A DNA stretch of 64,000 bases from Candidatus Eiseniibacteriota bacterium (GTDB lineage: Bacteria; Eisenbacteria; RBG-16-71-46; CAIMUX01). Every line of letters begins with the position of its first letter. The stretch's first letter is position 1. Where the stretch lies: the NCBI GenBank assembly GCA_903844735.1, contig CAIMUX010000064.1, forward strand, positions 1-64,000, in the 5' to 3' direction. The notes below the pieces were generated by a model. It did no database searches, was not told the DNA's origin, and saw only the letters and a program-made list of their open reading frames with translations. Positions 4,958 to 59,281 of this stretch are shown piece by piece. Made by a program: the position numbers and the translations under genes.

Positions 4958-4995
4958 GACTACTCAAGCAGACAGGATTCAGGAGTCAGAATTCA
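4958..4995 (+). repeat. Interspersed palindromic repeat, copy 1 (half element)
   Basis: Matches, in reverse complement, the right half of the full element at 58497-58590. Shared pieces include ACTACTCA, AGACAGGATTCAGG and GTCAGAATTCA. Only one arm is present here. Confidence 0.8.
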
Positions 4996-13985: not shown

Positions 13986-14020
13986 CAGATAGACAAAACT
14001 CAGGAGTCAGAACTCTGAAG
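13986..14020 (+). repeat. Interspersed palindromic repeat, copy 2 (half element)
   Basis: Reads CAGATAGACA..., then CTCAGGAGTCAGAA and CTCTGAAG. It aligns over its whole length with the arm at 58554-58590 (reverse complement) and with copy 1 at 4958-4995. Confidence 0.75.
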
Positions 14021-14260: not shown

Positions 14261-14740
14261 ACAGATCTTCGAGACCGCCCCCGACATCATGCGTCGTGTC
14301 CGAGGCGTTGCCGCGGTACCGACCCGCCTGGTCAAGGTTGGTCGAAAACGGACCGTCACCGCCAGGACCTGCCCGGCACCGAGTGAACACACCCGCCCCC
14401 GAGACCGGCGTGAACTCGGAGCAGGATGCGCGATGCTTCCGGTCAGCGTATCCCGGCCACCGTCGCGCAGAGTGAAGGAGCGGTCGGCCGCCTCCCCGGC
14501 ACGACGGAGCCGAAATCCAGACTGATCTGATCCAGCTTCGGGCTTCAGGAGGACAGGGGCACGGCAAGCGTCCCGAAGGCTCCTTGCGCTCGCCCCGAGA
14601 TGTAGGTCATAGTCCCGTTCGGCTGCTCGGAGGGGGCGGTAGGCCCGCGGGGGCATAAGGGCGCGCGGAGGGGGCGACAGGGCTTCTTCTGGGCCGGGAG
14701 TGTGTCGTGGGTTGTCTACTTCGGGCGTGATGGAGCCGCG

Positions 14741-27670: not shown

Positions 27671-27974
27671 GCACGGTGGGGGCCTGAGACTCGGAGTATG
27701 GAACGAATACGACTGGCTTCGGGCTTCAGGCTATCTGAGTCGTTACCCTGGCGTGCGTTTGTCCACGAACGTCCTGATCAACTGAATCCCTTGATTCTGA
27801 CTCAAGTGTAGACCGTCACGTGACGCTTGTAACTTCGTGCCGGGGATTCGCGTTTCGCGGCCGGTGCAAACAAAACCGCGGGGACGGGACCGGGACCGCC
27901 GGTAATGACGGTCCTAGCCTTTGCCCCCGCGGAGAAATCCTTGAGCGCGTGCCGATGGCGCCGGTTAACGCCCG
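27671..27974. other. Convergent intergenic region purF / pilQ
   Basis: About 300 bp. It contains a degenerate interspersed-repeat copy and a GGACCG/CGGTCC dyad (27893-27914) that might help terminate one of the converging transcripts. Confidence 0.5.
27703..27812. repeat. Interspersed palindromic repeat, copy 3 (degenerate, both arms)
   Basis: The left arm, read on the minus strand, contains CAGATAGCCTGAAGCC, comparable to CAGGTAGCCAGAAGCC at 58497. The right arm contains TTGATTCTGACTC, comparable to GAATTCTGACACC at 58552. As at 58.5 kb, it lies between two convergent genes. Confidence 0.5.
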
Positions 27975-56641: not shown

Positions 56642-57691
56642 ATGCGCATTCTTCATCTGCTCGACATCCCGTGGCACAGCGGGCTCGCGCACTACGCCCT
56701 CAGCCTGGCCGCCGCCCTACGCGGCGTCGGGCACGAGACATGGATCGGCGCGAGGCAGAGTTCAGGCCCGTGGACGGCGGCCGGGGCGCTCGGACTCCCG
56801 TGCGTGCCCTACGCCCGGCTTTCTTCGCTCCCGGCGCTGCAGGCTTTTCTTCGCCGCGAACGGATCGGTGTGGTCGACGCCCATACCGGAGGCACCCACA
56901 CCCTCGCCGTGGCAGCCACCGCCGGGCTGGCAGCCGTCGTGGTGCGCACCCGCGGCGACGCGCGCCCCGTACGCAAGCGTCCGGGAGCCGGGCTCCTTTT
57001 CCGCCGCACCGGCCGCATCATCGCGGCTGCCGAGTACATCCGGCAGCAGTATCTAGATGCGGTGGGGCTCCCCCCCGAACAGGTCGTCACGATCCTGCAG
57101 GGAGTCGAGTTGCCGCCGGCCGTGTCGGCACCGGCCGGTTCGCCCCGCGTCGCCATCGTGGGCCGGCTCGACCCGGTGAAGGGTCACGCCGACTTCCTCG
57201 CGGCCGCGGCTCTGATCCTTCCCCGGCATCCGGGAACCCGCTTCATCGTCGCCGGCCGTCCCGAAACAATCGCACGGTCCGATCTCGAGCGGCAGGCCCG
57301 CGACCTCGGGCTGGGAGAGGCCGTCGAAATCACGGGGCATCTTGATGACCTCGCCGCGCTGCACCGCGAGGCCGGCATAGGGGTGGTGGCGTCCACGGGA
57401 AGCGAGGCGGTCTCGCGCGTCACTCTGGAGTGGCTGGCGGCGGGCCGGCCGGTGGTGGCGACCCGCGTGGGCGGGATCCCGGAACTCGTGGATGACGGGC
57501 GCACCGGGTTCCTCGTGCCGCCGCGCGACCCCGCAGCCCTGGCGGAGGCGATCGGAGTGTTGCTCGCGCATGACGAGAGGCGGCGGGTCATGGGCGAGGC
57601 GGCGCGCGCGGACGCGGTGGCCCGTTTCTCGCTTTCCCGCTTCGCGGCGGAGACGGTGCGCGTCTACGAGGAGGCCGGATGCCCCGCCTGA
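56642..57691 (+). CDS. GT4-family glycosyltransferase
   Basis: Cytoplasmic GT-B retaining transferase, 349 residues from the ATG at 56642 (GGAG 9 nt upstream). The N-terminal MRILHLLDIPWHSGLAHYAL has the acceptor-side glycine loop. The C-terminal domain has VAIVGRLDPVKGHADFL, GTRFIVAGR, and the donor-binding E-x7-E in SEAVSRVTLEWLAAGRPVVA. A partial copy of its 3' end lies at 49547-49654. It overlaps the following GT2 gene by 13 nt. Sugar and acceptor are unknown; lipopolysaccharide or exopolysaccharide assembly is likely. Confidence 0.9.
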   Translation: MRILHLLDIPWHSGLAHYALSLAAALRGVGHETWIGARQSSGPWTAAGALGLPCVPYARLSSLPALQAFLRRERIGVVDAHTGGTHTLAVAATAGLAAVVVRTRGDARPVRKRPGAGLLFRRTGRIIAAAEYIRQQYLDAVGLPPEQVVTILQGVELPPAVSAPAGSPRVAIVGRLDPVKGHADFLAAAALILPRHPGTRFIVAGRPETIARSDLERQARDLGLGEAVEITGHLDDLAALHREAGIGVVASTGSEAVSRVTLEWLAAGRPVVATRVGGIPELVDDGRTGFLVPPRDPAALAEAIGVLLAHDERRRVMGEAARADAVARFSLSRFAAETVRVYEEAGCPA

Positions 57692-58491
57692 GCGCGATCC
57701 TCGTGGTGCGTAACGAGGCGGGGCAACTCGATGACTGCCTCGCGGGTGTGGTCGGTCTCGCCGACGAGATCATCCTAGTCGATGACGAATCGAACGACGA
57801 CACGCGGGACGTGGCCCGTCGGTTCACCGACCGCGTGCTCACCCGAAAGCTCGATCGGTTCGGCGCGCAGCGGCAATTTGCCCTCGATCACGCCACCGGC
57901 GACTGGGTCCTCTCTATCGACGCCGATGAGCGGATCACCCCTGCGCTGCGTGCCGAGATCGTGCGTGTCCTCGACGACCCCAGCGCGTCGGATGGCTACG
58001 AGATCCGCCGCGTTGTCTTCTTCCTCGGGCGACGGCTGCGCCATGGCGGCCTGGGCGACGAGCACGTGCTGAGGCTCTTCCGCCGGGCACGAGCCCGTTT
58101 CAGCGACAACGCCGTCCACGAGCACGTCATGGTGGACGGCCGCACCGCCAAGCTGCAAGGGGCCTTGGAGCATCACACGCACCGATCGCTTCGTCGCTAT
58201 GTGAAGAAGGTCAACCTTTACACCGACCTCGCCGCCGGGGAGCGGTTCGACCGCGGCGGTCGCTTCCACTGGTGGATGCACTTGCGCCCGGTGTGGAAGT
58301 TCTTCTCGCGGTTTGTGCTGCGCGGTGGATTTCTCGACGGGCACGCCGGGTTCATCTATGCAGGACTGACGGCGTACGCGACGTGGCTGCGGGCGCTCAA
58401 GATGTGGGAGATGGGGCGCACCGGTACGTCTCTCGCCGGGATCAAATCTGGGGCTTCACGGGCTCCCGACAACATGACAAACGTATCGTAA
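57679..58491 (+). CDS. GT2-family glycosyltransferase (LPS-core WaaE-like)
   Basis: GT-A inverting transferase, 270 residues. N-terminal SAILVVRNEAGQLDDCL, the nucleotide-binding EIILVDDESNDDT, and the metal-binding DxD as LSIDADERITP. The second half, HGGLGDEHVLRLFRR, ALEHHTHRSLRRYVKKVNLY and WKFFSRFVLRGGFLDGHAGF, is characteristic of the LPS-core beta-glucosyltransferase (WaaE/KdtX) family. Overlaps the GT4 gene, so the two probably build the same glycan. Confidence 0.9.
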   Translation: MPRLSAILVVRNEAGQLDDCLAGVVGLADEIILVDDESNDDTRDVARRFTDRVLTRKLDRFGAQRQFALDHATGDWVLSIDADERITPALRAEIVRVLDDPSASDGYEIRRVVFFLGRRLRHGGLGDEHVLRLFRRARARFSDNAVHEHVMVDGRTAKLQGALEHHTHRSLRRYVKKVNLYTDLAAGERFDRGGRFHWWMHLRPVWKFFSRFVLRGGFLDGHAGFIYAGLTAYATWLRALKMWEMGRTGTSLAGIKSGASRAPDNMTNVS

Positions 58492-58496
58492 CTGCG

Positions 58497-58590
58497 CAGG
58501 TAGCCAGAAGCCGGGAGTCAGAATGAGGACGCTCCCCGACCTGAAACTTCTGAATTCTGACACCTGAATCCTGTCTACCTGAGTAGTAAC
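58497..58590. repeat. Interspersed palindromic repeat, copy 4 (complete element)
   Basis: Nested inverted repeats: CAGGTAG (58497-58503) with CTACCTG (58575-58581), and GTCAGAAT (58517-58524) with ATTCTGAC (58554-58561). The spacers between the pairs are 13 nt on both sides and partly complementary. This gives an ~85-bp imperfect palindrome between two convergent genes, which could also act as a bidirectional terminator. Confidence 0.85.
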
Positions 58591-58597
58591 GTGCTCC

Positions 58598-59281
58598 TTA
58601 CATCGCCCAGTCGATGCGATCCTGGATCGCCGCCTGCTTCTTCGGCCCGATCCCCTTCACCCGCAGAAGATCGCGAGGGGACCGAAACGGTCCGGCCTTC
58701 TCCCGCTCCTCCACGATCCGCTTCGCGAGCGCCGGGCCGACACCGGGCAACGCCTCGAGGTCGAGCGCCGAAGCCCGGTTGATCGCGATGCGCCCCGTCG
58801 CGGCAACGCCTGCCGGGATGCTCGACGCCGACTCGATCGGGACTGCCTCCAAGGCCCCGGCCCCGGGTAGGGAAGCCGTCGATTCTGCCACGGCCCCATC
58901 GAAAACAGTTTCACCTGTCTCATCACTTCTGTGTGCTGCGATGAATTTTCCGTCGGCAGGATTCTTGGACGTGGCGCTAGGCGTGATTCCGGACATGGTC
59001 CAAGGCATGGTCCCAGACATGGTCGCGGGCATGGTCCCAGACATCGCGCGTGCGACGGCGGCAGGCATGGCTCCGGGCACGGCTCCTCGCCGGCCACCCG
59101 CGAGGTCAGCCCCTGCTCCCAACGACTCCGCCCGCGCCGCCTGTGCCCGCGTCAGCCAGGCCGAAAGCTCGCGATCCGGCCGCGCCTTCCGCTCATCCCG
59201 TAGAAGAGCAGCTCCCTGGCCGAGGACAAGCAGACTGAGCAATCCCAGGAGGGCCCTACGTTCTTCGGGGGTCAGAATCAT
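58598..59281 (-). CDS. ComEA-like helix-hairpin-helix protein
   Basis: 227 residues; ATG with GGAGG 5 nt upstream. A short N-terminal membrane segment (~12-28) anchors the protein. A low-complexity Met/Thr/Pro linker follows (~67-105), then tandem HhH motifs at ~168-226: INRASALDLEALPGVGPALA and LLRVKGIGPKKQAAI. This is the ComEA arrangement (membrane anchor plus HhH that binds incoming DNA non-specifically). A role in DNA uptake with the type IV pilus is plausible but not proven; comEC/comF are not in the window. Confidence 0.85.
   Translation of the reverse strand: MILTPEERRALLGLLSLLVLGQGAALLRDERKARPDRELSAWLTRAQAARAESLGAGADLAGGRRGAVPGAMPAAVARAMSGTMPATMSGTMPWTMSGITPSATSKNPADGKFIAAHRSDETGETVFDGAVAESTASLPGAGALEAVPIESASSIPAGVAATGRIAINRASALDLEALPGVGPALAKRIVEEREKAGPFRSPRDLLRVKGIGPKKQAAIQDRIDWAM
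58992..59087 (-). repeat. 24-bp tandem repeats in the ComEA-like gene
   Basis: Four units of 24 bp, each of two 12-bp halves (GACATGGTCCAA / GGCATGGTCCCA on the plus strand). They encode the Met-rich linker MSGTMPATMSGTMPWTMSG. Confidence 0.85.

What the first reader, a model, noticed from the sequence alone, without database searches (positions are those of the whole stretch)
58497..58590. Interspersed palindromic element family, at least four copies between genes
A complete copy at 58497-58581 is an imperfect ~85-bp palindrome with two pairs of perfect arms (7 and 8 bp) and symmetric 13-nt spacers. Half or degenerate copies occur at 4958-4995, 13986-14020 and 27703-27812; a 15-bp piece of the latter (GCTTCGGGCTTCAGG) recurs at 14534. 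All are outside genes. The symmetric structure and the mixture of complete and half copies suggest a small mobile or REP/MITE-like element; two copies sit between convergent genes, so some may serve as bidirectional terminators.
Basis: seen in the sequence. Interest (0 to 1): 0.75.

Follow-up and report, generated by a model that had tools for sequence, protein, structure and literature searches.

The report
Dead mini-transposon carrying rRNA-insert gene
The palindrome is a dead 103-bp stub of a small jumping element: relatives in many bacterial phyla carry an orphan gene best known from inserts in 23S ribosomal RNA, and their ends and 8-bp target duplications match those of IS66 transposons, which points to how this gene could move between genomes.

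Summary
The copy at 58488-58590 (103 bp; slightly larger than reported) belongs to a family with about 50 decayed copies in this genome. It is not REP-like, shows no arm covariation and no terminator features. It is an internally deleted non-autonomous transposon. Outer ends are GTWACTNCTCAGGTAG inverted repeats; inside lie inverted arrays of 7-bp units (TCAGAAT type), then remnants of a 23S-rRNA-intervening-sequence protein gene (IVP/S23p, PF05635). The other 46 genomes held from its phylum lack the element. The same ends recur in 112 stretches of GTDB genomes from many phyla, some around an intact IVP gene. In 65 paired-end elements the flanks carry an 8-bp target duplication (18 perfect, 35 at 7/8 or better, z=18.6). 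Single-ORF IS66 transposons of Nostoc, Acaryochloris and Geobacillus (ISGka4), and a DruA+IS66 transposon in Elusimicrobia, share these ends; the first three also have perfect 8-bp duplications. So the element most likely moved in trans by IS66 transposase, though none with matching ends was found in this genome. A wider, apparently unreported point: IVP genes are commonly bracketed by inverted arrays of roughly 7-nt repeats whose unit differs by lineage (30 of 41 loci).

The parts
58488..58590 (+). whole deletion-derivative element, 103 bp (orientation of the IVP remnant)
   Evidence: left half aligns to the family left end with one exact 7-nt unit missing; right half 55/57 identical to the family right end
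58488..58503 (+). left terminal inverted repeat GTAACTGCGCAGGTAG
   Evidence: family consensus GTWACTNCTCAGGTAG
58504..58524 (+). left array of 7-nt units (CCAGAAG CCGGGAG TCAGAAT)
   Evidence: array length varies by whole units between copies
58523..58540 (+). remnant of the start of the IVP gene (ATGAGGACGCTCCCCGAC), ending in the deletion junction; 7-bp microhomology CCCCGAC at 58534-58540
   Evidence: overlap of left and right alignments; longer copies continue into FEDLVVWQ..AYRLSRTFP
58541..58574 (+). right array (inverted): CTGAAACTTCTGAATTCTGACACCTGAATCCTGT
58575..58590 (+). right terminal inverted repeat CTACCTGAGTAGTAAC
4959..4995 (-). solo right-end fragment
   Evidence: 92% identity, E 2.3e-8; score 33 vs chance 12-13
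13986..14020 (-). solo right-end fragment, degenerate
   Evidence: score 23
27713..27746 (-). solo left-end fragment (GGTAACGACTCAGATAGCC on the minus strand)
   Evidence: score 22
27764..27803 (+). possible remnant of a right-end array, borderline
   Evidence: score 13, at the 99% level of random windows

Best explanation
The palindrome is a dead, internally deleted copy of a small non-autonomous DNA transposon. [quoted passage not shown] An IS66-family transposase acting in trans cuts at the terminal repeats and inserts the element with an 8-bp target duplication. Internal deletions between short homologies left only the two ends in the window copy, which looks like a palindrome because it is two inverted transposon ends joined together. 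Shown here: the ends, the 8-bp duplications in relatives, an intact IVP gene between the same ends in another phylum, matching ends on IS66 transposons, internal deletions, and decay of the copies in this genome. Inferred: IS66 transposase mobilised this family, the element entered this genome by horizontal transfer, and IVP aids the element or its host.
For: About 50 dispersed copies in the own genome and none at E<=1e-6 in the 46 other genomes held from its phylum. Longer own copies read into an IVP N-terminus (FEDLVVWQ..AYRLSRTFP) and then jump to the 3' end. The same ends appear in 112 stretches of GTDB genomes of at least eight named lineages, with an intact 137-aa IVP frame in L078/L220. 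TSD test on 65 elements: 8-bp identity 0.685 vs 0.294 expected, z 18.6, 18 perfect, 35 at >=7/8; all other lengths from 4 to 12 have z from 0.1 to 3.7. IS66 partners with matching ends: Nostoc GTAACTGCCCAGGTAG with TSD attttacg, Acaryochloris GTTACTGCCCAGG with aaatcaac, ISGka4 GTAACTATTCAG with aactcgtc; Elusimicrobia DruA+IS66 element GTAACTACTCAG. That Elusimicrobia genome also holds small elements with these ends and unrelated contents, some with perfect 8-bp TSDs. IS66 is reported to make 8-bp duplications and to have ends starting GTAA (PMC11946415). Window copy: 7-bp microhomology at the deletion junction.
Against: No IS66 transposase with matching ends was found in the own genome, nor in the Auribacterota genome whose copies have near-perfect target duplications (one weak PF03050 match, no end pairs 1-3 kb apart); a Nostoc IS66 query found nothing in seven host genomes (no positive control). 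The window copy has no recognisable 8-bp duplication (1/8). The Elusimicrobia full-length transposon L244 also lacks a clear TSD. The end-matching IS66 elements were picked out by a search that asked for GT..AC ends and a duplication, so their duplications are partly selected for; the match of their ends to the family is not. Some IVP genes with TCAGAAT-type arrays lack the GTAACT ends (Trichormus L186, Nostoc L362, Aulosira L363), so arrays plus IVP can exist outside the IS66-type frame.
Confidence: 0.8

Rival explanations
1. REP/REPIN-type repeat moved as single-stranded DNA by a Y1 (RAYT) transposase.
For: Short palindromes in intergenic DNA, many copies; one Y1_Tnp match in the genome.
Against: The Y1 gene is split over two frames and its locus shows no copy of the element. 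Relatives have 8-bp target duplications, which Y1 enzymes do not make (general knowledge). Ends match IS66 ends.
Confidence: 0.03
2. Functional RNA: a conserved hairpin acting as bidirectional terminator or mRNA stabiliser.
For: Strong fold (z -5.6); the main copy lies between convergent genes.
Against: No T-run terminator; no Rfam match; arms vary independently; strong fold follows from two inverted transposon ends; many copies are solo ends that cannot fold this way.
Confidence: 0.05
3. The element is mobilised by a transposase of another family that shares the ends and makes 8-bp duplications, or IVP itself is a required partner of the transposase.
For: No matching IS66 found in hosts with fresh copies. 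IVP is under strong purifying selection across phyla (pN 0.06-0.22 vs pS 0.54-0.92) and keeps being found with the arrays.
Against: IS66 elements with the same ends and duplication length exist; elements with these ends and no IVP remnant also have perfect duplications (L282, L293), so IVP in cis is not needed.
Confidence: 0.12

Closest known systems
IS66 family insertion sequences (single-ORF type such as ISGka4) and their MITEs / mobile insertion cassettes
   Same: terminal repeats of the form GTWACTNYYCAG; 8-bp target duplication; small non-autonomous copies moved in trans
   Different: interior is not derived from an IS66 element but from an IVP gene with 7-bp arrays; no partner found in this genome
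23S rRNA intervening sequences encoding IVP/S23p (Coxiella, Leptospira)
   Same: same protein family (PF05635), about 430 bp, inverted ends enclosing one ORF, called selfish; transposition-remnant hypothesis (PMC4990558)
   Different: located between genes, not in 23S rRNA helices; has TIRs and 8-bp duplications; no evidence for RNase III processing
REP / REPIN sequences with RAYT
   Same: short intergenic palindromes in many copies
   Different: 8-bp duplications, IS66-like ends, no linked RAYT
Heptameric repeats of unknown role (GGGAATC in Xanthomonas and Nostoc, PMC4692102; TAACTGA in Beggiatoaceae, PMC4679880)
   Same: 7-nt tandem units in intergenic DNA; an IVP gene in L230 is flanked by TAACTGA-type units
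   Different: the passages read do not link the repeats to IVP genes; the link in those organisms was not tested here

Membership tests
IS66-type MITE / mobile insertion cassette | terminal inverted repeats matching an IS66 element | tested here: met
   GTAACTGCCCAGGTAG (Nostoc), GTTACTGCCCAGG (Acaryochloris), GTAACTACTCAG (Elusimicrobia) vs GTWACTNCTCAGGTAG
IS66-type MITE / mobile insertion cassette | 8-bp target duplication | tested here: met
   65 family elements, z 18.6 at 8 bp; not recognisable at the decayed window copy
IS66-type MITE / mobile insertion cassette | autonomous partner with the same ends in the same genome | tested here: not met
   own IS66 loci lack these ends, e.g. GTGTCCTTTCGGCAA on C88; met only in the Elusimicrobia genome G054
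IS66-type MITE / mobile insertion cassette | transposition in trans by IS66 transposase | not testable with these tools
   needs an experiment
23S rRNA intervening sequence (IVS) | IVP/S23p ORF | tested here: met
   intact in relatives (solved relative 2gsc, E 6.7e-19); only remnants in this genome
23S rRNA intervening sequence (IVS) | insertion in a 23S rRNA helix | tested here: not met
   copies examined in the window lie between protein genes; no Rfam match in the window
REP/REPIN | linked RAYT (Y1) transposase | tested here: not met
   one Y1 gene split over two frames, no copy at its locus
REP/REPIN | no target duplication | tested here: not met
   8-bp duplications in relatives
Intrinsic terminator | GC-rich hairpin followed by T-run | tested here: not met

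The most novel reading that the evidence does not exclude
IVP (S23p) genes form a large class of selfish cassettes in which the gene sits between inverted arrays of about 7-nt repeats whose unit differs by lineage. The arrays are IVP binding sites and the cassettes travel inside the end frames of IS66 (and perhaps other) transposons. This class would account for part of the unexplained heptamer repeats in bacteria and would be the source of 23S rRNA intervening sequences.
Probability: 0.3. Interest if true: 0.8.

Novelty: new variant of a known kind. Interest (0 to 1): 0.62.

Why it matters
IVP/S23p genes are known chiefly from fragmented 23S rRNAs, and how they spread has been an open question; a transposition origin was only a hypothesis (PMC4990558). 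Here an intact IVP gene and many IVP remnants occur inside IS66-type ends, with 8-bp target duplications, in several phyla, which gives a concrete, testable route. The heptamer arrays around IVP genes could also explain a class of simple repeats that is over-represented in bacterial genomes without explanation.

Tried and rejected
Rfam scan of the window: nothing. RAYT link: one Y1 gene split over two frames, no copies beside it. RNA covariation: none in terminal positions 1-6 and 8-13 over 65 elements, and fewer matches than expected at position 7. Terminator or promoter: none found. IMG/VR viral contigs: no match to the end pattern. Intact IVP in the own genome: none, one sub-threshold match. 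Other genomes of the phylum: element absent. IS66 partner in the own genome: the complete DruA+IS66 element on C88 has other ends; C77, C117 and C3 show none. Own copies are too decayed for a duplication test. The 14534 15-mer was dropped as chance. The FLSHclust paper (PMC10910872) names IVP only in a figure legend on CRISPR-adaptation associations, not with these arrays.

Full report
What is in the window. The element at 58488-58590 is 103 bp long: GTAACTGCGCAGGTAG - heptamer units - ATGAGGACGCTCC/CCGAC - inverted heptamer units - CTACCTGAGTAGTAAC. It folds far better than shuffles (z -5.6). Its left half matches the family left end with exactly one 7-nt unit missing; its right half is 55/57 identical to the family right end; the halves overlap in 7 bp (CCCCGAC), as expected of a deletion between short homologies. 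The upstream glycosyltransferase ORF (57679-58491) ends on a TAA inside the element's GTAAC; the downstream gene (helix-hairpin-helix protein, 58598-59281, minus) is convergent. Solo ends lie at 4959-4995, 13986-14020 and 27713-27746; 27764-27803 is borderline and 14534 is not above chance.

In the genome. A nucleotide search gives 64 matches; rows at E<=1e-3 merge into about 40 places, and further ones appear. Longer copies show what the interior was: after the heptamers comes ATGAGGACGCTCCTCGACGAGATTTGAGGACTTGGTGGTGTGGCA..., whose third frame reads RFEDLVVWQ.AH..VLEAYRLSRTFP, then a jump to a 3' end that begins GATCTGAAACTTCTGAATTCTGAC. This is the start of an IVP protein (PF05635), as the intact relatives show. 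The own-genome consensus carries a frameshift relative to intact relatives (compare MRTSATRFEDLVVWQ in the Armatimonadetes copies), and no intact IVP exists in this genome. The other 46 genomes held from the phylum lack the element at E<=1e-6, which suggests horizontal arrival followed by decay.

In other genomes. The pattern ACTNCTCAGGTAGNCAGRANNCRG hits 112 stretches in GTDB genomes: Armatimonadetes, Auribacterota, Lentisphaerae/Victivallales, Verrucomicrobia, Acidobacteria, Elusimicrobia, Kiritimatiellia, Thermodesulfovibrionales, Aminicenantes; none in viral contigs. L078/L220 (Victivallales) holds an intact IVP frame between both ends. Many others are independent internal deletions, for example an N-terminus fused to a C-terminus in Auribacterota. 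Nostocales plasmids carry annotated 'four helix bundle' or 'S23' genes with the same heptamers but without the outer GTAACT end. IVP proteins from five loci are 68-89% identical with pN far below pS, so the protein is under purifying selection. The nearest solved structure is XCC0516, 2gsc, reported as a pentamer of four-helix bundles (PMC4990558).

Insertion signature. I paired inverted ends (12-bp core with at most one substitution over both ends) and compared the 8 bp outside left and right. In a first set of 26, z was 7.6 at 8 bp. In the enlarged set of 65, identity at 8 bp is 0.685 against 0.294 for shuffled pairing, z 18.6, with 18 perfect and 35 at >=7/8; other lengths from 4 to 12 have z from 0.1 to 3.7. 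The arms show no coupled changes at positions 1-6 and 8-13, and at position 7 the two ends agree less often than expected, which speaks against an RNA-level pairing constraint.

Which transposase. IS66 loci in the host genomes were checked for ends. In an Elusimicrobia genome (G054) a 2436-bp transposon with a DruA-like ORF and an IS66 DDE ORF has ends GTAACTACTCAG and GTAACTGCCCAGGT; an internally deleted relative has GTAACTACTCAGGT at both ends. The same genome holds 75-240 bp elements with these ends and unrelated interiors, several with 8-bp duplications. In annotated plasmids, single-ORF IS66 elements have the same end type with perfect 8-bp duplications: Nostoc UHCC 0870 GTAACTGCCCAGGTAG/attttacg, Acaryochloris GTTACTGCCCAGG/aaatcaac, ISGka4 GTAACTATTCAG/aactcgtc, Chlorohelix GTAACAATTCAG/ttcaattt. 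Published IS66 features (8-bp repeats, ends starting GTAAGCG; PMC11946415) fit. Weak point: no matching IS66 element was found in the own genome or in the Auribacterota genome with fresh copies; a Nostoc IS66 query found nothing in seven hosts, without a positive control. Multi-copy IS elements are often lost from binned metagenome assemblies (general knowledge), but this remains the main gap.

A wider pattern. IVP genes found by family search in the other host genomes were examined regardless of ends. In 30 of 41 loci the upstream flank matches the reverse complement of the downstream flank above the 99% level of mismatched pairings; direct orientation gives 5. Periodicity at lag 7 (identity >=0.75) occurs in 22 of 41 loci against 2 of the control flanks, with a smaller signal at lag 8 (9 vs 0). 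Units differ by locus: GTTCTTG, CGGTGAG, GGTCAGA, GTGTCAG, GGATTAA, TAACTGA and others. In G055, GTAACTNCTCAGGT ends also enclose GTTCACG-type arrays. I found no paper that links heptamer arrays to IVP, but the library holds open-licence papers only; heptamer repeats themselves are known and unexplained (PMC4692102, PMC4679880).

Verdict. The finding is a real, ordinary-looking fossil of an interesting element: a non-autonomous transposon with IS66-type ends and an IVP gene with heptamer arrays as cargo. The window copy itself is dead.

Noticed in passing
L214-L243, L299-L318 (PF05635 loci in genomes G048-G060): IVP genes are bracketed by inverted arrays of about 7-nt tandem repeats, with a different unit at nearly every locus (30 of 41 above the 99% null).
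   Followed up: partly
L244:1706-4141 (Elusimicrobia G054); G000:C88: IS66 transposons that also encode a homologue of DruA, known as a Druantia defence protein (PF14236); in the own genome contig C88 is a whole such element (3541 bp) with different ends, GTGTCCTTTCGGCAA.
   Followed up: partly
L282, L293, L297 (Elusimicrobia G054): Small elements with the same GTAACTGCTCAGGT ends and perfect 8-bp duplications but no IVP content.
   Followed up: partly
L230 (Lentisphaerae genome G050): The IVP gene is flanked by TAACTGA-type units, the repeat described as an unexplained regulatory repeat in Beggiatoaceae (PMC4679880).
   Followed up: no
G000:C118:57345-57610: A Y1 (RAYT-like) transposase gene split over two frames, the only one found in the genome.
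   Followed up: partly
L246:2921-3514 (Elusimicrobia G054): A 197-aa ORF without Pfam match sits as extra cargo inside an internally deleted IS66 element.
   Followed up: no
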